IMG/VR virus record: IMGVR_UViG_3300029309_000273
Location: 1-28,121 of that record
Length of the DNA stretch: 28,121 nucleotides
Strand: one strand, 5' to 3'
DNA from: a virus
Below the pieces are notes generated by a model. That model was not told where the DNA came from, ran no database searches, and was given only the letters and a program-made list of their open reading frames with translations. The number at the start of each line of letters is the position of its first letter. Positions within the stretch are counted from its first letter, which is position 1. Position numbers and translations under genes: made by a program. Positions 4,526 to 26,591 of the stretch are shown here, piece after piece.

Positions 4526-5029
4526 TTGATAAAAAGATGCAGTAAGTGTAAGAAATATAAATTTAAATGGAAGTACAATAAAAATAGGAGAAAGAAAGAC
4601 GGACTACAACATCAATGCAGACCTTGCCAACATGAATACCATAATAAGAAATGGTATCCAAAGAATAAAGATAAAAGAGTAAAAGCTGTAAAAGATTATA
4701 AGTGGAGAAAAAGAGAAGAGAATTATAGGAGAGTAGTAAAAGAATATTTTGTTAAGGGTTGTGTTGATTGTGGCGAAAATAATGTAAGAGTATTAGAGTT
4801 TGACCATGTTAGAGGTAGGAAAAGAAAGGTAGGTAAACGAGGATTAGAAGGGGTTTCTTACATGATTAGACATGGATACAAATGGAGCACAATTAAAAGA
4901 GAGATAGATAAATGTGAGGTTAGATGTCGTAACTGCCACAAAGAAAAAACATGGAAAGAAAACAATTATTGGAAAGGTTTTGAAGATATTACAAAAAATA
5001 ATGGAACAAATAGAAAGGATAATAGTTAG
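4526..5029 (+). CDS. HNH endonuclease with N-terminal zinc ribbon
   Basis: This 167-residue, very basic protein has an N-terminal zinc ribbon (C5-x2-C8, C31-x2-C34) and a C-terminal HNH domain. The HNH domain has C79-x2-C82, the catalytic-type E91-F-D93-H94, then C130, C134 and C137-H138. The family cuts DNA, often as a free-standing homing endonuclease in phages; which target it cuts cannot be read from the sequence. It begins with a TTG immediately after the upstream stop. Its basic composition contrasts with its acidic neighbours, in keeping with insertion as a mobile intronless homing gene. Confidence 0.85.
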   Translation: MIKRCSKCKKYKFKWKYNKNRRKKDGLQHQCRPCQHEYHNKKWYPKNKDKRVKAVKDYKWRKREENYRRVVKEYFVKGCVDCGENNVRVLEFDHVRGRKRKVGKRGLEGVSYMIRHGYKWSTIKREIDKCEVRCRNCHKEKTWKENNYWKGFEDITKNNGTNRKDNS

Positions 5030-5551: not shown

Positions 5552-5670
5552 TGATAACGAAGGGGATAGTTTTGGTTGGTTTTATTGTCCTTCTTGTTTA
5601 CCAACCTCTCTTAAACAACGTCATGTATAGGCTATCCCCTTCTCCTCACATACCAAAGGATAAAACATAG
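5551..5670 (+). CDS. Small single-span membrane peptide, 39 aa
   Basis: The frame starts at ATG 5551 in a TAATG overlap and ends in a TAGTG overlap with the GTG start of the Cas4-like nuclease. The product has one hydrophobic span, GIVLVGFIVLLVYQPLL (residues 5-21), after a single N-terminal Lys, then a Pro/Ser-rich tail (YRLSPSPHIPKDKT). Its coding DNA is bracketed by a perfect 11-bp inverted repeat. That could mean the peptide is a by-product of a conserved RNA fold, but the double coupling argues for translation. Function unknown. Confidence 0.55.
   Translation: MITKGIVLVGFIVLLVYQPLLNNVMYRLSPSPHIPKDKT
5559..5642 (+). repeat. Nested inverted repeat / long RNA stem-loop
   Basis: GAAGGGGATAG (5559-5569) is exactly complementary to CTATCCCCTTC (5632-5642). 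Inside it, GGTTGGT (5574-5580) is complementary to ACCAACC (5600-5606). The transcript could therefore form an outer 11-bp stem with an inner 7-bp stem just ahead of the nuclease start at 5670. No U-tract follows, so it is not a simple terminator. Confidence 0.7.
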
Positions 5671-6395
5671 TGGATATACAAAAAGTTTATGATGAATGGT
5701 TGCGTTCTGAGAATGACTTACATTACAGAAAAAGATATGAGGGTAAAGAAGAATGGTTTCATGCTTCAGCATCAGGAATGTGTATGCGTAAACATTATTT
5801 TCAACATATAGCAGGTATAAAACCTAAGCCAGTTAGTGATGATACTATGAGATTATTTAGACTAGGAGATTTGGTTCATGGAGATATACAAGATGCAGTA
5901 AGAGAATATGCAGATAAAAATGGTGCACAAGTAATGATAGAAAAAGAAATAACTATACCTGAAGTAAATGTCAGGGGTTTTTTTGATTTACTTTTAGTAG
6001 AAAATGGTGCAATGATTGATATAAAGACTTGCAATGCTTGGAAGTGGAGAGGGTTGTTTGGTAGAAATCCTGATCCAAATCCTGCTATTAATTACTTTTT
6101 ACAATTAGGAACTTATGCTTGGTGGTATGAAGAAGAATCAGGGAACAAAATAAAAAAGCTTGCGTTATTATATTATAACAAAGACAATAGTAGAATGAGA
6201 GAAAAAAGAATACCGATATCATATATAGACAAAGCAAAAGAATATTGGTATGATGTTAAACAACGCTTCAAGAGAGGCAATCCACCTATACAACTTGGTA
6301 TTGCACCAGTATATAAATGGGAATGTAATATTAAATACTGCAACTTTTATGAGGTATGTGGTGGTGGATTAAAAGAGAAAGGAACAGACCTATGA
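5670..6395 (+). CDS. Cas4/RecB-like PD-(D/E)XK nuclease, probable Fe-S exonuclease
   Basis: The 241-residue protein has the RecB/Cas4 nuclease layout. SASGMCMRKHYF contains C38. H70 lies in RLGDLVHGDI (motif I). D106 lies in GFFD, and D117-I-K119 forms the D-x-K motif. Q145-x3-Y149 is the QxxxY motif. A C-terminal cluster C219, C224, C230 follows. Together with C38 this gives four cysteines placed as in Cas4 and AddB, where they bind a 4Fe-4S cluster. Such enzymes resect DNA ends for recombination. Here it heads a recombination cassette. The start is GTG with CAAAGGA upstream. Whether it relates to CRISPR Cas4 functionally is unknown; no CRISPR array is present. Confidence 0.85.
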   Translation: MDIQKVYDEWLRSENDLHYRKRYEGKEEWFHASASGMCMRKHYFQHIAGIKPKPVSDDTMRLFRLGDLVHGDIQDAVREYADKNGAQVMIEKEITIPEVNVRGFFDLLLVENGAMIDIKTCNAWKWRGLFGRNPDPNPAINYFLQLGTYAWWYEEESGNKIKKLALLYYNKDNSRMREKRIPISYIDKAKEYWYDVKQRFKRGNPPIQLGIAPVYKWECNIKYCNFYEVCGGGLKEKGTDL

Positions 6396-7729: not shown

Positions 7730-7977
7730 AAAAACAAAAATGCATAGCAAGTATTAAGTTTTCACAGCAAGAAGTAGAGCTTATGATAAACGCATTAGAG
7801 AATCTAATTAAATTAGAAATACCATTTCAAGATAGTGCTGATTGGAGAAAGCCTTACGAAATGTTATTAAAAGACCTTAAAAAAATTAAATCAGACATGA
7901 ATAACAAGATAGAAGAAGCAATGCTAAATAGAGAGCATGAAGAGACTTCTACAATATATGGTGAGGTATGTGAATGA
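7726..7977 (+). CDS. Hypothetical helical protein, 83 aa
   Basis: A small protein predicted almost wholly helical, with the segment QEVELMINALENLIKLEIPF and a lysine-rich second helix (KDLKKIKSDMNNKI). It lies between two nuclease genes and overlaps both by four bases (ATGA), so it belongs to the same translated unit and may be an accessory subunit. No known domain is recognised. Confidence 0.75.
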   Translation: MKKQKCIASIKFSQQEVELMINALENLIKLEIPFQDSADWRKPYEMLLKDLKKIKSDMNNKIEEAMLNREHEETSTIYGEVCE

Positions 7978-8300
7978 AGAATAAAGAAAATGTAAGAAGA
8001 GGTAGAAGAGCGAGACAGCGTGGAGCAGAACTACAAAGGCAAGCTGTACGCATGGCAAAAGATTTAGGACTAGAGGCATTTAATCGTGATAGGGGTGGTG
8101 CACAACATGAGCAAGGCGATATAGAGATTGAAGGTCATTGGTATGGGTGCAAAAGAAGAACTCGTATTGCTCAATGGCTCAAACCTGAAAAAGAAGAAGA
8201 AGGAGTTGTAGTTAGAGAAGATAGGGGTAAGCCTTATATCGTATTAGACTATGAATACTTTTTAAATATGCTATCTATAATGAAAGAGATGGCAGACTAA
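7974..8300 (+). CDS. Holliday-junction-resolvase-like PD-(D/E)XK protein
   Basis: The 108-residue basic protein has the layout of small archaeal-type/phage resolvases: RRGRRARQRGAELQ with E19, a NRDRGGAQHEQGDI loop with D49, then a strand ending in G58-C59-K60, and a C-terminal GKPYIVLDYEYFLNML. The residue usually found as Glu two before the catalytic Lys is Gly here, so activity might be altered or a different acid may serve. If active, it would resolve or cut branched DNA before packaging. The position at the end of the nuclease cassette agrees with that. Confidence 0.6.
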   Translation: MKNKENVRRGRRARQRGAELQRQAVRMAKDLGLEAFNRDRGGAQHEQGDIEIEGHWYGCKRRTRIAQWLKPEKEEEGVVVREDRGKPYIVLDYEYFLNMLSIMKEMAD

Positions 8301-16135: not shown

Positions 16136-16489
16136 TTACCCAGCACTAACTTTTAACGTTCCAGAATCGTTCCATAATTGACCAGCATTAGTTGGATCAC
16201 TTGTAGGTAAATTACTTAGTTTTACAGTACCGCCACTAACATCTAATGTACCTTTTACATTTAAATTACCACCTACAGATAAATTTTTATTTACCCTATA
16301 ACTATTATCTGTATCCATAAAAGATACCCATAGCCTGCCTTGCTCTTTTCTATATCTTTCTAATCTATTAGACTTAGATATGTATATAACTTCTTGACCT
16401 TCTCTAAGTGAGTTAACAGATGGTTGTGATCTTACTACCTGTATCTTGTCTTGTTTAGAATTTTGTGTTCTTCTTGTTTCTCTAATCAT
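16136..16489 (-). CDS. Small fibre-like structural protein with beta-repeat
   Basis: The 117-residue protein has a basic N-terminal region (MIRETRRTQNSKQDKIQVVR), a central beta segment (EGQEVIYISKSNRLERYRKE) and, at residues 66-92, a short-period repeat (NKNLSVGGNLNVKGTLDVSG) of the kind that forms beta-helices in tail fibres and spikes. The end (DPTNAGQLWNDSGTLKVSAG) is typical of phage fibre tips in marine viruses. It is coupled to the preceding 825-residue gene by TAATG. A minor tail appendage is likely. Confidence 0.6.
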   Translation of the reverse strand: MIRETRRTQNSKQDKIQVVRSQPSVNSLREGQEVIYISKSNRLERYRKEQGRLWVSFMDTDNSYRVNKNLSVGGNLNVKGTLDVSGGTVKLSNLPTSDPTNAGQLWNDSGTLKVSAG

Positions 16490-19203: not shown

Positions 19204-19418
19204 TATTTTTTCTCCTTTAGTATTTCTTTTATTTCTGCGATGTCTTCCATCATTACATCTAACTTATATGTTATTAATTCTTTATCTGCCTTTTTATCTA
19301 GCTGACTCTTTAATGCATTTATATCATATTTCATAAAACCAAAAGCTAATGTCACTGCACATACCATTGTTAGTATTGTAACAATATTTTCAATAGATAT
19401 ATTTGTGTTCAATTTCAC
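19203..19418 (-). CDS. Membrane-anchored coiled-coil protein, 71 aa
   Basis: A GTG start at 19418 overlaps the preceding stop (GTGA). Residues 11-29 form one hydrophobic span (NIVTILTMVCAVTLAFGFM), and the rest is a charged helix likely to coil (KSQLDKKADKELITYKLDVM). This layout is shared by several small phage lysis or lysis-control proteins and by membrane anchors. I cannot tell which. It is one of three or four such proteins between 19203 and 21335. Confidence 0.7.
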   Translation of the reverse strand: MKLNTNISIENIVTILTMVCAVTLAFGFMKYDINALKSQLDKKADKELITYKLDVMMEDIAEIKEILKEKK

Positions 19419-19813
19419 GCTCTTCTTACTTTTCTAGCTACCTTTTTACTGTATTTAGCTCTTTGCTTACCCTTGGCAGAAGCTTGTCTTTTCTTCCTAT
19501 TGGTAGCCGCACGCTCTGAGGCACTGAGACTTTTCCTAACTGATTCAGGTAAATAACGACCTCTCTTAGCTCTTGGTTTTTTTTCATCTCCCTTGCTGAC
19601 ATAATCCCATTTCTGTTTTGACCATTTAGATAATCTATTACTAGATGATTTAGCACCTTTGTACCCACCACCTCTTTTTTTATAACGCTTTGTAGCAATT
19701 TGAGCTTTACGAGCACTCCACTGCCCCGGTCTTCCTCCAGAGCTACCAGCTTTTACAGAAGCTACAATGCTCTTCCACATTTTCTCGTTAGTCTTTTTTG
19801 CTGTCTTAGCCAT
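19415..19813 (-). CDS. Basic DUF5872-like protein
   Basis: The 132-residue protein is very basic. Residues 26-53 read GGRPGQWSARKAQIATKRYK and then G-G-G-Y-K-G. Later come LSKWSKQKWD and RYLPESVRKSLSASERAATN. This order matches my recollection of the DUF5872 family found in phages and large DNA viruses, whose role is not established. The high Lys/Arg content and tryptophans suggest contact with nucleic acid. It starts at a TAATG overlap with a 40-residue basic gene. Confidence 0.7.
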   Translation of the reverse strand: MAKTAKKTNEKMWKSIVASVKAGSSGGRPGQWSARKAQIATKRYKKRGGGYKGAKSSSNRLSKWSKQKWDYVSKGDEKKPRAKRGRYLPESVRKSLSASERAATNRKKRQASAKGKQRAKYSKKVARKVRRA

Positions 19814-19935
19814 TACTTCTTTATCTTTTTTACTTTACCGTTTTTTGTTCTAGCAAACTTATGCGTTTTAGTTTCTCTTATTAGTGTGCCGTAGTGTTTT
19901 TTACCACCCCACATCCAACTAACTTTCCTAGCCAT
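19813..19935 (-). CDS. Very small basic protein, 40 aa
   Basis: This frame fills the gap between two genes exactly: its ATG shares a base with the preceding stop (TAATG, 19933-19937), and its stop shares a base with the next ATG (19811-19815). The product starts MARKVSWMWGGKKHYGTLIR and has 14 Lys/Arg against a single acidic residue. The tight coupling and the composition like its neighbours make it a confident call despite the length. Function unknown; nucleic-acid binding is a reasonable guess. Confidence 0.75.
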   Translation of the reverse strand: MARKVSWMWGGKKHYGTLIRETKTHKFARTKNGKVKKIKK

Positions 19936-20189
19936 TACTTTCCAACTTTTTTCTGAGCCATTTTATGAGACTGACCAAAAGTTTTACCTTTTTTCATGGC
20001 TGTAGCCATAGCTCTAATATGTTTAGCTGTATGATGTTGCGAATGCCTTTTCATAGCATTTGCTTGTCTAGCTGTTAGACCAGCCATTGAAACACCTTTA
20101 ACTGATTTAGGTGCTTTTGAACTCATTGCTTTTGATTTCATTGGTGGTCTACCTTTTTTTGAACCGTATGTTCCTTTTCCTCTTGGCAT
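19935..20189 (-). CDS. Very basic protein lacking acidic residues, 84 aa
   Basis: The protein contains no Asp or Glu at all, with 17 Lys and 5 Arg and several His residues. It begins MPRGKGTYGSKKGRPPMKSK, has a central helix (GLTARQANAMKRHSQHHTAK) and ends in a lysine-rich tail. I recall similar MPRGKGTYGxKxGRP proteins in marine phage genomes, without a known role. Histone-like or DNA-condensing activity in the virion is a hypothesis. AAAAAGGAG precedes the ATG. Confidence 0.75.
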   Translation of the reverse strand: MPRGKGTYGSKKGRPPMKSKAMSSKAPKSVKGVSMAGLTARQANAMKRHSQHHTAKHIRAMATAMKKGKTFGQSHKMAQKKVGK

Positions 20190-20208
20190 AATATACTCCT
20201 TTTTTATT

Positions 20209-20499
20209 TTACCATTTTACTCTGTTTGCCCAGTAAGCCGCACTCATTTTACCTTTAGCAATATTTTTAGCATGTCTAGCCTTAAATGACTTTCTTTTCA
20301 TTTTCATTCTTTTAGACTCACCTGCTTTTGGCTTTCCTGCTGTGCTAGCTCCTTGCTGACCAAAACGTATTGTTTTTACTTTGTCCCCTACTTTGGCTAC
20401 AACTATATGAGATTTTTTAGGATGATTTGGAGTTCGCTTTGGTTTATTAAAAGCTGACACTCCTGCTCTAGCTAATCTTGGATCTTTCTTTTTTGGCAT
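20209..20499 (-). CDS. Very basic protein, 96 aa
   Basis: The product starts MPKKKDPRLARAGVSAFNKP and carries about 29 Lys/Arg against 3 acidic residues. A short beta segment (SHIVVAKVGDKVKTIRFGQQ) suggests a small folded core, followed by a basic helix (KRMKMKRKSFKARHAKNIAK) and a conserved-looking AAYWANRVKW end. The family is common, by memory, in marine phages and uncharacterised. It is the first gene of the basic cluster, and a TAGGAG-type site precedes it. Confidence 0.75.
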   Translation of the reverse strand: MPKKKDPRLARAGVSAFNKPKRTPNHPKKSHIVVAKVGDKVKTIRFGQQGASTAGKPKAGESKRMKMKRKSFKARHAKNIAKGKMSAAYWANRVKW

Positions 20500-21219: not shown

Positions 21220-21335
21220 ACCTCATAACCAGCTATACTCCAACCACCATCACAACTTCCAAGGATTACTAGCCCTCCAAGTATAACTATTAAGAATAAT
21301 ATTATACTAAGATAATCTTTCCAATCTTCATTCAA
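21216..21335 (-). CDS. Small membrane protein / candidate lipoprotein, TTG start
   Basis: A 39-residue frame with a TTG start at 21335, overlapping the end of the 142-residue gene, and with an ATGA overlap with the next start. The product has a hydrophobic span (SIILFLIVILGGLVILGSC) and the sequence L-G-S-C at residues 25-28, which fits a lipobox, followed by Asp and an 11-residue tail. The N-terminus lacks the usual positive charge, which weakens a signal-peptide reading. Coupling and the hydrophobic pattern support it as real; function unknown. Confidence 0.5.
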   Translation of the reverse strand: MNEDWKDYLSIILFLIVILGGLVILGSCDGGWSIAGYEV

Positions 21336-21756
21336 TGTCTGATGTCCATTCTGTTCCAGAAAGTTCAGTCATTATCTGACTATGTGAATATTTATCATAA
21401 GAACTAAACATGGCAGGATCATTATCGGGATCATTATCACAAGCAAACTTTAGTAATGCTTTTGAACTATCTCCAGTTTCACCATTGTTTTTTCTAAGTG
21501 TTTCTTTGCTTGATTGTATTGCATTAGCTATAAAAGCATTAGATACAGGAATAGCTCCTAATAGCTCTGATTTATTCATATCTGAGGTATATTCATAGCC
21601 ATAGCTATCCATCCATGCTTTTATCTGCACTACTGTATTTGAGTCTGTAGGTGCATCTGCTGAATCAATATCAGCTACAGGCACAATCATATATGCCCTG
21701 TGCGACCATCTACCACTATAGTCATCTGACCATCTGTTTGTTACTTCTTCACTCAT
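21328..21756 (-). CDS. HeH-motif protein next to the adhesin
   Basis: Residues about 43-69 (VQIKAWMDSYGYEYTSDMNK, then S-E-L-L-G-A-I) fit the short helix-extension-helix (HeH/LEM-like) pattern I-K-x-W-L-x-x-x-G-I/Y-x-Y-x-x-x-x-x-K-x-E-L-L, known from phage structural genes, where it often sits in head or tail accessory proteins. The rest is acidic and unrecognised. It lies between the LamG adhesin and the small membrane proteins. Its function may be attachment or assembly; I cannot decide. Confidence 0.6.
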   Translation of the reverse strand: MSEEVTNRWSDDYSGRWSHRAYMIVPVADIDSADAPTDSNTVVQIKAWMDSYGYEYTSDMNKSELLGAIPVSNAFIANAIQSSKETLRKNNGETGDSSKALLKFACDNDPDNDPAMFSSYDKYSHSQIMTELSGTEWTSDIE

Positions 21757-21767
21757 AATTAATTCCT

Positions 21768-24700
21768 TTAAGGTGTTGTTGTTGAACGATTAATATCACC
21801 TTTTGCATAACCCTCTGGTTCTGCGTTTGGTGGTGATTGTAAAGTTGTACCAGATACTGTTCCATGATTTGAGTTACCACTTCTGTCATATATTGTAGAA
21901 CTTGTATCTTCAAATCCACTTGTAGCATCTAAATTACCAAATGCTAAATATGTTATTAAATTATCACTAAAATCTGTATATAGATTAGAATGCCTACCAT
22001 TATTATATATGCTTAATATTTGAGCATCCGTTAAAGATTTATTCCAAAATGCGACTCCTGTCATATCGCCATCAAAAGGAATATCACCAGTATTACCAGT
22101 ACCAATTTTGATATTTCTATTAGTATGAAGTCCTACATGACCAGTACCTGATGTTGTAACAGTTTGGGGTTGACCATTATAATATATCACATATTTTGAA
22201 CCATCCCATACAAATGCTATATGTGTCCAAGAATCATTTGGTATTGTTTCACCTCCTGTTGGAATCCAACCTGTAAATACTGTACCACTTCCTTGATTGT
22301 CTACCATTGTAATCAATTCATTGGTTAAAGAACCTGTAGCAGTTCCTAAAGTAATAGAACCAAAATCCCAACTACCAAAAAACATAATTTGTTTACCAGA
22401 ACTTGCAGTTGTAAATGTTGTAGTTGGTTTCATCCAAAATGAAACAGATTTATAATCTGTGTTTACTGCATTTGCTGTAACTACATCGTTTGTACCATCA
22501 AAGCTACCAAATCCATAACTTGAATTAGCCCCTGTGAGAAAGGATTGGTCTGGTAGAACTGAGGAGTAGACTAAATCAGCAGAGTCTTGATTTGTCATTG
22601 TGCCGAAATTGCCTTTTACCTCTTTGATACTTATACTTGATAAAGTACCTATAAATGATTGTGAACGAAGCATAATAAGACCATCTTGATTTGGAACTGC
22701 ATAATTAGTAAATGTGCCTACACCACCTATTGATGATGATATACCAAAATTAATTCCAAATGTAGCAGAACCACCTGCGTGAGTTAATGAACCACTTGTA
22801 TACGCAGAACACACTACTACTATTTTATATAATTTTGATGTATCCCAAGTAACATTATCTGCTATAACATAAAAATCACTACTAACACTACCACCATTAA
22901 CAACCATTTCTCCATTAAATGTAGTAAGTGAAGATAAACTACTTGGTACTGTTACTCCTGTTCCATTACTAAAATCATGTGTTAATGTTTCTACTCCCAA
23001 CACAGGCTCATTTACATCTATGATGGCAGGGTGGGTGTCACTTAGGTCTGATTGTAAGACTTCTTTAAAAGATATATCTGTTAGAGTAAATGAGTTACCA
23101 CTACCAGAGGCTTGTATTTGAAATACACTACCATCACCAACCGCATACAAAGTGTGTGTACCATTTGCATAATTAACAAAAGAGCTATTTACAAAATCAA
23201 GATTTAATAACGCATTTCCACTTGATACTATTGTTAATTGCAATTTGTATAATCTACCACTTACAAAAGTATATTGAGTGGAGGCATCTTGCATAACTGT
23301 TAATCTTCCAACACCACCACCAGATGTAAATGACCAAGCTCCGCCCGTAATTTCTCCAACACCAGATAACTTAAAGTTTGCATTAGTAGCCCCATTTGCT
23401 AATGCAGTATCAAATGATGAATCATTAACTATCTCTCCACCCAACTCTTCTGAACTACTCTCAAATGCCCCCATGTCATAACCTGCTACCATCTGCTGTA
23501 CTATGTCATCTGATGCACCATTTGTGATCGTACCATCGTTTGAGTTAGAACTTGAATCTGCTATGGTAGGATATGCTTTACTTGTGTCATCGCCCATTCT
23601 GTAGTATGCTACAAGCCCACTAAGTGAAGATTCATCATATGTAATACCTTGCTGATAAATAGCATAGACTTCCTCGGCTAATTTGGCTGTGTTGTAAATA
23701 CTTACACTTGATATAGAACCATCATAAGTAAAACTACTACTATAAAATGCACCTATAATAGTTTTCATACCATCAAAGTTTAAACTTGATGGAAAACTAC
23801 TTGAATTATCAGCATGAGTAGTTACACCATCTACATATAGTTTTGTTTTAGTATAATCACTTGAATCCCATACTGCCATAATATGATGCCAACCACTTGT
23901 AAGTGTTTCTGTTACACTCCAAGTAGTTCCATTTAATCTAAATATTATATTATTTGATAAAGATACAATCGTTATTACACCATGATTATTACTAAAATCA
24001 CCAATGTGAACAAGAGCATCATTAATAGCTGAAACATCTGTTAAATTTGCCCATATAGAAAAACTTAAATCTCCTGTGTAACTATCACCTAATGATGTTC
24101 CTAATCCTGTGCCTGTATCGATATAATCATTAGCACCATCAAAATCCACGACAGAAAATCTGTTGTCTCTCATGGGGGTGAATCTGCTCTTTGCAAACTG
24201 TGAAATGGTTTGAGCATCGAGTTGAGTCTTATAAAGAGCAAGATTTGATATTTTACCATTTGCATAAGTAGAGCTAATTCTTCCAATTTCTAACTCCCCA
24301 CCTAGATTTTCCATAGCTACATAAGTACCACCACCAATTAGTGTTGTTGATTTTTCAACACCATCTATATATAATTTTACACCTGCATTAGCACTTGTTC
24401 CACCTACACCATTATATGTAGCACATACATGAAACCAAGAATCTTGAAGGCTTGTTAAAGCAGTATTAAAATATGCACCTTCAAAAGTATTATTTACACT
24501 TTCATCATACAAAGAGAAAAATAATTTATCATCACCATCTAATTGAAATATATATTCAGCATCTGTATTAAAGACACCCTTTGATACTATTGTAAAGTTT
24601 GTAGCATCGACAGGGTTTATCCATGCAGATATACTAAATGGCGAATCACTTGAGCCATCTCCAAATGATAAATCATCATTATCTGCAACACTCACAAAAT

Positions 24701-25406
24701 CATCCGTACCATCAAAGTCTGTATAGAAGTCCTGTCTTGCGATTGCAGTATTTGATTCTGGTTCTGCTTTGTCTCCACAGCGTAACCAGAGTTTAAGGTT
24801 GCCTGTCCTGTCTGTAGCATACTTAGATGCTTTAGAGAAATCAACTGGCTTTGAGGCGATCTTTGCGACATCTGAGGCACTTAAAGCAGTATCCCAGATA
24901 GCAACTTCGTCAATGAGTGATTTTATTGCTCTTGGAGTACTGTAATCTTGATTGCCTATGTGTAAATTAGGAACATGCTCTGTTAAATCTGTTCCTGTAG
25001 AATTACTCGCAACTAAACTTCCATTTTTATATAATTTATTACCAACTCCAGATTCATGTACAGCTACAACATGATGCCAATTTCCATCATTTGATGCACT
25101 TCCAGAATCTGTAATTAATATAGAACCACCTCTATAAATTTCAAATTCTAATTTTCTACTACTATTTAATCTTATTAACCAACCATCATTATCGCCATCA
25201 TTTGCTTTAGATACAAATATTTCATTAGTTGCAGTTGCGTCTGTTGTGTTAAACCAAAAAGAAACTGAAAAACTACCACTAAACTGTATTCCTGTTGAAT
25301 TACCACAGTCTAAATAATCATTAGAACCATCGAAATTGAAGGAAAAGTCGTTGGGAAACTTTTTTATTACCCCACTCTTTGTTAGTAGGTTGCCTAAGCC
25401 AAGCAT
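21768..25406 (-). CDS. Multi-LamG-domain adhesin, probable receptor-binding protein
   Basis: The 1212-residue protein contains four concanavalin A/LamG-like domains, each opening with an F-D-G-x-x-D-Y/F/V signature (near residues 25, 231, 422 and 969) and with a W-H/F/T-H-V/I-strand (near 110, 324, 506 and 1060), and each ending in an L/V-x-x-Y/W-x-x-x-L/A-x-x-x-x-I helix. Between the third and fourth lie two carbohydrate-binding-like beta domains (about 657-785 and 805-930). Such domains bind glycans or cell-surface proteins. The size, repeats and position in the late operon suggest the host-attachment fibre or a head/tail decoration. No enzymatic residue is seen. Confidence 0.8.
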   Translation of the reverse strand: MLGLGNLLTKSGVIKKFPNDFSFNFDGSNDYLDCGNSTGIQFSGSFSVSFWFNTTDATATNEIFVSKANDGDNDGWLIRLNSSRKLEFEIYRGGSILITDSGSASNDGNWHHVVAVHESGVGNKLYKNGSLVASNSTGTDLTEHVPNLHIGNQDYSTPRAIKSLIDEVAIWDTALSASDVAKIASKPVDFSKASKYATDRTGNLKLWLRCGDKAEPESNTAIARQDFYTDFDGTDDFVSVADNDDLSFGDGSSDSPFSISAWINPVDATNFTIVSKGVFNTDAEYIFQLDGDDKLFFSLYDESVNNTFEGAYFNTALTSLQDSWFHVCATYNGVGGTSANAGVKLYIDGVEKSTTLIGGGTYVAMENLGGELEIGRISSTYANGKISNLALYKTQLDAQTISQFAKSRFTPMRDNRFSVVDFDGANDYIDTGTGLGTSLGDSYTGDLSFSIWANLTDVSAINDALVHIGDFSNNHGVITIVSLSNNIIFRLNGTTWSVTETLTSGWHHIMAVWDSSDYTKTKLYVDGVTTHADNSSSFPSSLNFDGMKTIIGAFYSSSFTYDGSISSVSIYNTAKLAEEVYAIYQQGITYDESSLSGLVAYYRMGDDTSKAYPTIADSSSNSNDGTITNGASDDIVQQMVAGYDMGAFESSSEELGGEIVNDSSFDTALANGATNANFKLSGVGEITGGAWSFTSGGGVGRLTVMQDASTQYTFVSGRLYKLQLTIVSSGNALLNLDFVNSSFVNYANGTHTLYAVGDGSVFQIQASGSGNSFTLTDISFKEVLQSDLSDTHPAIIDVNEPVLGVETLTHDFSNGTGVTVPSSLSSLTTFNGEMVVNGGSVSSDFYVIADNVTWDTSKLYKIVVVCSAYTSGSLTHAGGSATFGINFGISSSIGGVGTFTNYAVPNQDGLIMLRSQSFIGTLSSISIKEVKGNFGTMTNQDSADLVYSSVLPDQSFLTGANSSYGFGSFDGTNDVVTANAVNTDYKSVSFWMKPTTTFTTASSGKQIMFFGSWDFGSITLGTATGSLTNELITMVDNQGSGTVFTGWIPTGGETIPNDSWTHIAFVWDGSKYVIYYNGQPQTVTTSGTGHVGLHTNRNIKIGTGNTGDIPFDGDMTGVAFWNKSLTDAQILSIYNNGRHSNLYTDFSDNLITYLAFGNLDATSGFEDTSSTIYDRSGNSNHGTVSGTTLQSPPNAEPEGYAKGDINRSTTTP

Positions 25407-25410
25407 TGAC

Positions 25411-25707
25411 TTAGCCTATGTAAGCTATTACAAGTCCAGATGTAAGGTCAATAGTATTCCACCTACCATAGATAGTAACACCCTGTGGTATTGTTTCAGA
25501 TGCCATTGTATTACCATTGTAACTACCCACACCATAACCATTGGTAGTATCTGTAGGTGTTAGTGCATTGAATACAGTATCCTCTAACATTGTAATTGCT
25601 ACAAATGTACCTGAGTGAACTGCTGTATCTGAAATAAATTTAGCACCTGCTTGACCTAGTGCTACATTGCTGGATTCATTAACCGTATATTTATTTATAC
25701 TTGCCAT
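25411..25707 (-). CDS. Small structural (decoration/fibre-base-like) protein
   Basis: The 98-residue protein (MASINKYTVNESSNVALGQA...) has HSGTFVAITMLEDTVFNALT and ends IDLTSGLVIAYIG. A pattern of S-G-x-F-V-A-I, then a G-x-T-I-Y-G turn, then a final S-G-L-V-I-A-Y strand is common, as I recall, in a minor structural protein of marine phages. AGGAGAAAC lies before the ATG. It may connect the adhesin downstream to the virion. Confidence 0.6.
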   Translation of the reverse strand: MASINKYTVNESSNVALGQAGAKFISDTAVHSGTFVAITMLEDTVFNALTPTDTTNGYGVGSYNGNTMASETIPQGVTIYGRWNTIDLTSGLVIAYIG

Positions 25708-25763: not shown

Positions 25764-26591
25764 TTATTTAAAATCTGCTGGGACTACTGCCCTAGTTCCA
25801 CCAGTTTTACTTCTCTTTTTTGTTCCGTATTTCTTTACGGCATTATTAAAACTTCTTTCATGTTGTGCCATTAGTCCCATAGAAACCTGTGCTATATTAC
25901 CGTCACTTGCCGTTCCAGCCCTATCCATATATAAGCATTTTTTCACATAATCTACAATAGCAGAATGAAATAAATTATCCACATCTGGAGTATCTGTAAT
26001 TGCAGTTACTCTTTTAGGGTTTCCATAGTAATGTATTAAAAGACCATTAACTATATTATGATCTATTGCAGTGTAAGATTTCCTAGCTGTTCTCGTTTCA
26101 CTTTCTGAATCATAGTTTGTAATGATACCCATGTGATCACCACGAATAAAATAATTAACACTAGCTTCAGGATACTTTATATTACCAGCTAGTTGACCAG
26201 TACCTTGTGTAGTTATAGATATTGTATGTGTACTATTAAAATCAGAAGCATCTGTAACACTACCTCTATTTGTGTTTGTCACTGTAACTTCATTGCTAGA
26301 AATAGATGCTGAAAAATTAGACAAAGCATCTAATGCATTTTTTACCGCTGTCGCAACTGTAGCCGCATTATCATCTGTAGATATATTTACTTCTATACCT
26401 GTTTTACCAGATAGCGATGGATCTGAGCCTCCACTAGAAACATCAAACCAAACATAATATTCTACTGTTTTAAATCCTACGTCTGTGGTTGCATCTACCT
26501 CGATAGCATTAATAAAAAAATATGTACTTTGTTTATTCCCACCCTCATCAGGTCTGCATATTATTTTTGTTACTTCTTGTGCTAATGCCAT
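25764..26591 (-). CDS. Structural protein with Ig-like insert
   Basis: The 275-residue protein has a middle domain YYVWFDVSSGGSDPSLSGKT, then GIEVNISTDDNAATVATAVK, then VTVTNTNRGSVTDASD. I recognise this as a recurring beta-rich module in phage and bacterial surface proteins. The C-terminal third is helical and basic (DYVKKCLYMDRAG, FNNAVKKYGTKKRSKTGGTR). The arrangement is that of a neck or tail-associated structural protein carrying a display domain. It is coupled to the preceding connector gene by TAATG. The assignment as structural is firm by context; the exact role is not. Confidence 0.65.
   Translation of the reverse strand: MALAQEVTKIICRPDEGGNKQSTYFFINAIEVDATTDVGFKTVEYYVWFDVSSGGSDPSLSGKTGIEVNISTDDNAATVATAVKNALDALSNFSASISSNEVTVTNTNRGSVTDASDFNSTHTISITTQGTGQLAGNIKYPEASVNYFIRGDHMGIITNYDSESETRTARKSYTAIDHNIVNGLLIHYYGNPKRVTAITDTPDVDNLFHSAIVDYVKKCLYMDRAGTASDGNIAQVSMGLMAQHERSFNNAVKKYGTKKRSKTGGTRAVVPADFK

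What the first reader, a model, noticed from the sequence alone, without database searches (positions are those of the whole stretch)
21768..25406. 1212-residue adhesin with four LamG-like and two carbohydrate-binding-like domains
Four diverged LamG units with F-D-G-x-x-D openings make up most of the protein. Units one, three and four are each followed by a short recurring extension (N-L-K-L-W-L-R-C-G-D, G-L-V-A-Y-Y-R-M-G-D, L-I-T-Y-L-A-F-G-N). Tandem LamG domains of this size are unusual in a tailed phage and suggest modular change of receptor or adhesion to particles or mucus-like glycans.
Basis: partly seen in the sequence, partly recalled or inferred. Interest (0 to 1): 0.6.

Follow-up and report, generated by a model that had tools for sequence, protein, structure and literature searches.

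The report
Phage adhesin with swappable lectin cores
An uncultured phage carries a six-domain sugar-binding-type adhesin gene in which the middle of each domain is replaced, one slot at a time, by unrelated versions shared with other phages, while the segments between slots stay nearly constant; this would be a way to build many adhesin combinations from one frame.

Summary
Window 21768-25406, minus strand, encodes a 1212-aa protein with four Laminin_G_3 domains, two CBM_4_9-like domains and the described extensions. It lies among head/tail genes of a podovirus-like phage with an SU10-type adaptor.

Comparing 76 gene records (34 complete) from viral contigs gave an unexpected pattern. Seven scaffold blocks (N-terminus, first and last strands of each LamG domain, the "extensions", linkers, C-terminus) are conserved and keep one order. 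The six domain cores between them are nearly unrelated (about 28% identity, the level of random core pairs), yet single cores are 86-100% identical in genes whose other cores are unrelated. Near-identical phages (99.4-99.8% nucleotide identity over 2.4-6.1 kb) differ by a whole core, with the break at the core's edge. LamG cores also move between LamG slots and into other genes. Slot combinations fit independent assortment.

Best reading: a virion adhesin diversified by recombination of domain cores into a fixed scaffold. No reverse transcriptase was found in 20 records. Assembly chimeras do not explain the slot-to-slot moves. Virion location, ligand and host are unknown. Phage domain shuffling and marine "metaviromic islands" are known; this six-slot form was not found described in the papers searched.

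The parts
21768..25406 (-). LamG/CBM adhesin gene, 1212 aa, ATG at 25406
25308..25406 (-). scaffold block J0 (res 1-33): N-terminus and first strand FDGSNDY of LamG1
   Evidence: conserved block in the relatives
24921..25307 (-). variable core of slot L1 (res 34-162), LamG
   Evidence: 87-96% identical in L004 and L018, about 24-31% in other relatives
24699..24920 (-). scaffold block J1 (res 163-236): last strands of LamG1, extension NLKLWLRCGD, first strand of LamG2
   Evidence: strand 204-208 in the model
24252..24698 (-). variable core of slot L2 (res 237-385), LamG
   Evidence: 90% identical in L036, 56-68% in L009, L008 and L066, unrelated in most
24129..24251 (-). scaffold block J2 (res 386-426)
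   Evidence: identity with L005 ends here
23712..24128 (-). variable core of slot L3 (res 427-565), LamG; 22% identical in L005 although the upstream 3.2 kb is 99.4% identical
   Evidence: the core recurs at 87% in another gene in L044
23442..23711 (-). scaffold block J3 (res 566-655): end of LamG3, extension GLVAYYRMGD and linker
23070..23441 (-). variable core of slot CA (res 656-779), CBM_4_9-like
22992..23069 (-). scaffold block J4 (res 780-805), linker
22620..22991 (-). variable core of slot CB (res 806-929), CBM_4_9-like; 93% identical in L006, and 88.6% identical in DNA to part of a different gene in L053
22491..22619 (-). scaffold block J5 (res 930-972)
22044..22490 (-). variable core of slot L4 (res 973-1121), LamG
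21771..22043 (-). scaffold block J6 (res 1122-1212): end of LamG4, extension LITYLAFGN, C-terminus
25411..25707 (-). 98-aa gene directly upstream, often kept beside the adhesin gene
21328..21756 (-). 142-aa gene directly downstream, 55-91% identical beside most complete adhesin genes, also in phages with unrelated tail genes
25764..26591 (-). SU10-type adaptor protein (places the gene in the structural module)
   Evidence: Pfam PF24175 E 9e-7
5670..6395 (+). PD-(D/E)XK / Cas4-like exonuclease (possible recombination function)
7974..8300 (+). RusA-like Holliday junction resolvase (possible recombination function)

Best explanation
The gene encodes a virion adhesin (tail or head fibre; inferred) built as a fixed scaffold with six sockets: LamG, LamG, LamG, CBM, CBM, LamG. 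In the LamG slots the scaffold supplies the first strand and the last strands of the jelly roll plus the linkers; each socket takes an interchangeable core of about 110-160 aa that forms the rest of the domain (shown by comparison and consistent with the models). Cores are replaced individually by recombination between co-infecting phages, at the conserved scaffold DNA or at short shared motifs such as the F-D-G strand (breakpoints shown; enzymes and co-infection inferred). The result is combinatorial variation of binding domains under selection to change receptors or glycan targets (inferred).
For: 1) Seven scaffold blocks in constant order in complete relatives, with sharp borders to variable cores. 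2) Single cores 86-100% identical between genes whose other cores sit at ~28%, the level of random pairs. 3) Near-identical phages differ in a core with the break at its edge: L007/L027 99.8% over 6108 nt, L039/L097 99.6% over 5714 nt, window/L005 99.4% over 3180 nt, L090/L091 99.6% over 2438 nt; the L005 replacement core is 22% identical to the window's. 4) Reassortant trio: L089 shares CB with L090 (98%) and L4 with L091 (99%). 5) LamG cores move between LamG slots at up to 98% identity, outside sequence falling to 24-55%; no LamG/CBM mixing among 174-236 core families. 6) Cores recur in other genes of other architecture. 7) Slot sharing fits independent assortment: 517/40/3/0/1 gene pairs sharing 0-4 slots against 513/46.5/1.7/0.03/0 expected. 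8) Silent sites in scaffold blocks are not saturated (0.57-0.80 against 0.39). 9) The phage encodes an exonuclease and a RusA-like resolvase.
Against: No recombination event was observed directly; everything is inferred from metagenome contigs. Virion membership is inferred from gene position; no proteomics. No ligand, host or receptor is known. A few pairs share more slots than independence predicts, as expected for close kin. The structure models are of moderate confidence (mean pLDDT 71 and 60), and the extensions in particular are low to moderate.
Confidence: 0.8

Rival explanations
1. Assembly artefact: short-read assemblers joined variants at the conserved blocks, so the combinations are chimeric contigs.
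For: All relatives are metagenome contigs; 46 contig ends fall inside these genes, 22 of them in or within 10 aa of a scaffold block against about 31% expected, so assembly does struggle here.
Against: Cores move between slots, and into other genes, with dissimilar sequence immediately outside them, which a join at identical sequence cannot make. Linker J4 is only 78 nt. Near-identical genes recur in separate metagenome records (L012/L109 99.9% over 6.5 kb; L021/L022). Even if some joins are wrong, the variant cores themselves coexist beside the same scaffold.
Confidence: 0.07
2. Ordinary fast divergence: the cores simply evolve faster than the scaffold under relaxed or diversifying selection, without exchange.
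For: Conserved strands at domain ends and variable centres could in principle arise by point mutation.
Against: One core at 86-100% identity beside five at about 28% in the same pair of genes, and 99% identical phages with an unrelated core, cannot be produced by gradual divergence.
Confidence: 0.03
3. A dedicated diversifying system (diversity-generating retroelement, invertase or cassette array) swaps the cores.
For: Breaks lie repeatedly at the core edges.
Against: No reverse transcriptase in 20 records; most records hold four LamG_3 domains and no spare cassettes; only short, weak repeats in the gene region of the window; the change is whole-core replacement, not point mutation.
Confidence: 0.1
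4. The protein is a general adhesion or decoration protein (particles, mucus-like glycans) rather than the receptor-binding protein that sets host range. This concerns function only and is compatible with the exchange reading.
For: LamG and CBM-type domains are often carbohydrate-binding folds (general knowledge; folds); a separate 117-aa protein that looks like a short fibre is encoded at 16136-16489.
Against: Extreme, ongoing replacement is typical of host-recognition genes in marine phages (PMC3909814), but this does not exclude it.
Confidence: 0.3

Closest known systems
Domain mosaicism of phage receptor-binding proteins (PMC10684548)
   Same: Protein fragments are shared between otherwise unrelated tail fibres and spikes; recent shuffling is found in receptor-binding proteins.
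   Different: Here six slots sit in one conserved frame, cores fit inside conserved terminal strands, all LamG slots draw on one pool, and combinations are near random. That paper's main text does not mention LamG, laminin, lectin or concanavalin.
Metaviromic islands in marine phages (PMC3909814)
   Same: Lectin-like and carbohydrate-binding genes are among the parts that vary between nearly identical marine phages; some islands cover barely one domain.
   Different: That work rests on under-recruitment of reads; its text does not mention recombination or laminin G, nor did I find a multi-slot scaffold in the passages read.
T-even phage adhesin Gp38 (T2: four hypervariable segments between five glycine-rich motifs, PMC12529663)
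   Same: Conserved motifs alternate with hypervariable segments in a fibre-tip adhesin.
   Different: No sequence or fold relation was tested; here the variable units are whole domain cores of about 110-160 aa, of two fold classes.
Shared host-recognition modules of Alteromonas phages A5 and V22 (PMC10579305)
   Same: A host-recognition module is exchanged between distantly related phages; here too the gene and its 142-aa neighbour occur with unrelated tail genes.
   Different: Whole-module transfer there, single-core replacement here.

Membership tests
Laminin_G_3 / concanavalin A-like LamG domains (PF13385) | Profile match above the curated cut-off | tested here: met
   four matches over the cut-off
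Laminin_G_3 / concanavalin A-like LamG domains (PF13385) | Pentraxin/LamG jelly-roll fold | tested here: met
   models match laminin LG, neurexin, PAPP-A and pentraxins, Z up to 23 for LamG1 and 18 for LamG4; moderate model confidence
CBM_4_9 (PF02018) for slots CA and CB | Profile match | tested here: inconclusive
   window copy has no match; 8 of 39 relatives match in this region, best 2.5e-9
CBM_4_9 (PF02018) for slots CA and CB | Carbohydrate binding | not testable with these tools
   needs a binding assay
Phage receptor-binding protein | Encoded in the structural module | tested here: met
   between SU10-type adaptor gene and the 825-aa tail-type gene; relative G009 has SU10-type capsid, P22-like portal and terminase
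Phage receptor-binding protein | Presence in the virion and binding to host | not testable with these tools
   no proteomics, host unknown
Mosaic receptor-binding protein (domain shuffling) | Highly similar fragment in otherwise dissimilar proteins | tested here: met
Diversity-generating retroelement target | Linked reverse transcriptase | tested here: not met
   none in 20 records, though records may be fragments

The most novel reading that the evidence does not exclude
The scaffold is an evolved cassette-exchange platform: conserved DNA at the domain ends is kept as recombination handles, so that phages sharing this gene draw binding cores from a common, open pool into any LamG socket, possibly helped by a dedicated enzyme, giving an adhesin repertoire by reassortment.
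Probability: 0.2. Interest if true: 0.85.

Novelty: new variant of a known kind. Interest (0 to 1): 0.66.

Why it matters
If right, these phages change adhesins the way a kit is reassembled: one frame, six sockets, an open pool of cores. It makes the exchange of binding domains in uncultured phages measurable from sequence (slot by slot, with known breakpoints), may explain why such genes break metagenome assemblies, and supplies hundreds of natural scaffold/core pairs for the study of lectin-fold tolerance and of how phages keep up with changing hosts.

Tried and rejected
DGR: no reverse transcriptase in 20 records. Silent cassette archive: most records have four LamG_3 domains, all in the one gene. 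Invertible or site-specific repeats: only short, weak repeats in the gene region. RNA element: no Rfam match in the window. tRNA: none. Relatives among 84,980 bacterial and archaeal genomes: none confirmed with the scaffold patterns. Relatives in 50,697 phage records: none at 1e-5, only weak LamG matches at lax limits; the upstream 98-aa protein has none. Contig ends at scaffold blocks as a sign of coexisting variants: suggestive but weak. PDB matches to many unrelated proteins with lectin-like folds reflect a common fold and were not read as function. The VIA-align rows barely cover the CBM-like part, so they say nothing about it; one weak Foldseek row pairs the model with a CBM22 tandem (rank 50).

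Full report
Observation. The ORF 21768-25406 lies on the minus strand and gives a 1212-aa protein. Four Laminin_G_3 domains pass the Pfam cut-off. The two units between LamG3 and LamG4 match no family in this copy, but the same region matches CBM_4_9 in 8 of 39 relatives. The F-D-G-x-x-D openings and the extensions after units 1, 3 and 4 are present as described.

Setting. The gene lies in a block of minus-strand structural genes, downstream of an SU10-type adaptor gene (25764-26591) and upstream of an 825-aa tail-type gene. The window is a 28,121-base virus record, 33.5% GC. A relative record of 42,844 bases (G009, of locus L024) has a 141-base terminal repeat, an SU10-type major capsid protein, a P22-like portal, and small and large terminase subunits. 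Its terminase has only 24-26% identity to those of described phages in the rows listed, among them Roseobacter and Lentibacter phages. So this is an uncultured podovirus-like group; the host is unknown. No close relative of the adhesin exists in the phage collection, and none was confirmed in bacterial or archaeal genomes.

Relatives. Scans of viral contigs returned 59 loci with the protein and 75 and 56 with its two halves as profiles. After removal of duplicates, 76 gene records remain, 34 of them complete.

Pattern. Aligning complete genes shows seven conserved blocks (residues 1-33, 163-236, 386-426, 566-655, 780-805, 930-972, 1122-1212) separated by six variable cores. The blocks occur in the same order in the complete relatives. 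Median identity of the blocks among complete genes is 69-81%. Cores are 108-160 aa. Random pairs of LamG cores are 28% identical (95th percentile 36%), and pairs from the same slot are hardly more alike (29%) than pairs from different slots (28%). Silent sites in the blocks are not saturated (four-fold identity 0.57-0.80 against 0.39 expected), so the scaffold is of fairly recent common descent while the cores are not.

Exchange. Against this background, single cores are nearly identical between genes that otherwise differ: the window's L1 with L018 (96%) and L004 (89%), L2 with L036 (90%), CB with L006 (93%). Most pairs of genes that share a core share only one. Phages that are 99.4-99.8% identical over 2.4-6.1 kb diverge abruptly at a core edge: L007/L027, L039/L097, window/L005, L090/L091. 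The core that replaces L3 in L005 is 22% identical to the window's. L089, L090 and L091 form a reassortant trio. In 34 complete genes the number of gene pairs sharing 0, 1, 2, 3 and 4 slots is 517, 40, 3, 0, 1, against 513, 46.5, 1.7, 0.03, 0 for shuffled slots.

Movement between slots and genes. LamG cores pass between LamG slots at up to 98% identity (L039 slot 2 and L099 slot 1; L010 slot 4 and L050 slot 1, and others). Just outside such cores the sequences fall to 24-55% identity, with only short shared motifs such as the DNA of F-D-G. Among 174-236 core families none mixes LamG and CBM types. Cores also recur in genes of other architecture: L053, whose structural genes are close to the window's, carries two such genes with a CB core 91% identical to that of L006 (and 88.6% identical in DNA to the window's), and L044 carries the window's L3 core at 87%.

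Horizontal movement of the whole gene. In L004, L006, L007, L036 and others the adaptor and tail genes have no detectable relation to the window's, yet the scaffold blocks are up to 96% identical in DNA, and the 142-aa downstream gene is kept in most.

Structure. The two half models are mostly beta, of moderate confidence (mean pLDDT 71 and 60). They match tandem LamG proteins, PAPP-A and pentraxins. One alignment to PAPP-A covers residues 19-214 (LamG1 with its extension), and the model puts a strand at 204-208, so the extension after unit 1 is probably the last strand of its domain; the same is likely for units 3 and 4. This is consistent with the models, not proven.

Mechanism. Shown: replacement of cores at their edges in nearly identical phages. 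Inferred: recombination between co-infecting phages, through the conserved scaffold DNA for same-slot exchange and through short shared motifs for slot-to-slot moves, with help of phage enzymes. The window encodes a Cas4-like/PD-(D/E)XK exonuclease, a RusA-like resolvase and an HNH endonuclease. Inferred: selection for new receptors or glycans. No reverse transcriptase was found in 20 records, and no spare cassettes in most records.

Artefact check. Chimeric assembly is the main rival. It cannot explain slot-to-slot moves or cores in other genes, where the outside sequence differs, and near-identical genes recur in separate records. Contig ends cluster only weakly at scaffold blocks (22 of 46 against 31% expected).

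Comparison with what is known. Shuffling of receptor-binding protein fragments is established (PMC10684548), lectin-like and carbohydrate-binding genes are known variable islands in marine phages (PMC3909814), T-even Gp38 alternates conserved and hypervariable segments (PMC12529663), and host-recognition modules pass between distant phages (PMC10579305). The searches found no description of a fixed six-socket scaffold with exchangeable lectin-fold cores. The library holds only open-licence papers, so absence is not proof. I rate it a new variant of a known kind.

Noticed in passing
L053 2518-8700 (structural genes close to the window's): In place of the single adhesin gene there are two genes (892 and 1160 aa) with more LamG and CBM-like units that share single cores with the scaffold type; L044 and L048 carry genes of similar architecture.
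   Followed up: partly
record G015 (50,454 bases, locus L026): Ten LamG_3 matches in three genes (1388, 972, 788 aa) near the two ends of the record, perhaps one adhesin cluster if the genome is circular.
   Followed up: no
record G007 (73,241 bases, loci L017 and L042): Two genes of the scaffold type about 45 kb apart, the second cut by the contig end; two adhesins or a misjoined contig.
   Followed up: no
contigs IMGVR_UViG_3300010153_000056 and IMGVR_UViG_3300030330_001508: Each has the start of the adhesin gene at one end and its end at the other, as if a circular genome had been broken inside this gene.
   Followed up: no
window 16136-16489, minus strand: 117-aa protein with a repeat-like NLSVGGNLNVKGTLDVSGG and a tail-tip-like ending; a possible second, short fibre.
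   Followed up: no
window 19415-20499, minus strand: Three small, very basic proteins (132, 84, 96 aa) encoded among the structural genes.
   Followed up: no
window 4526-5029, plus strand: HNH endonuclease-like gene (TTG start) in the plus-strand region.
   Followed up: partly
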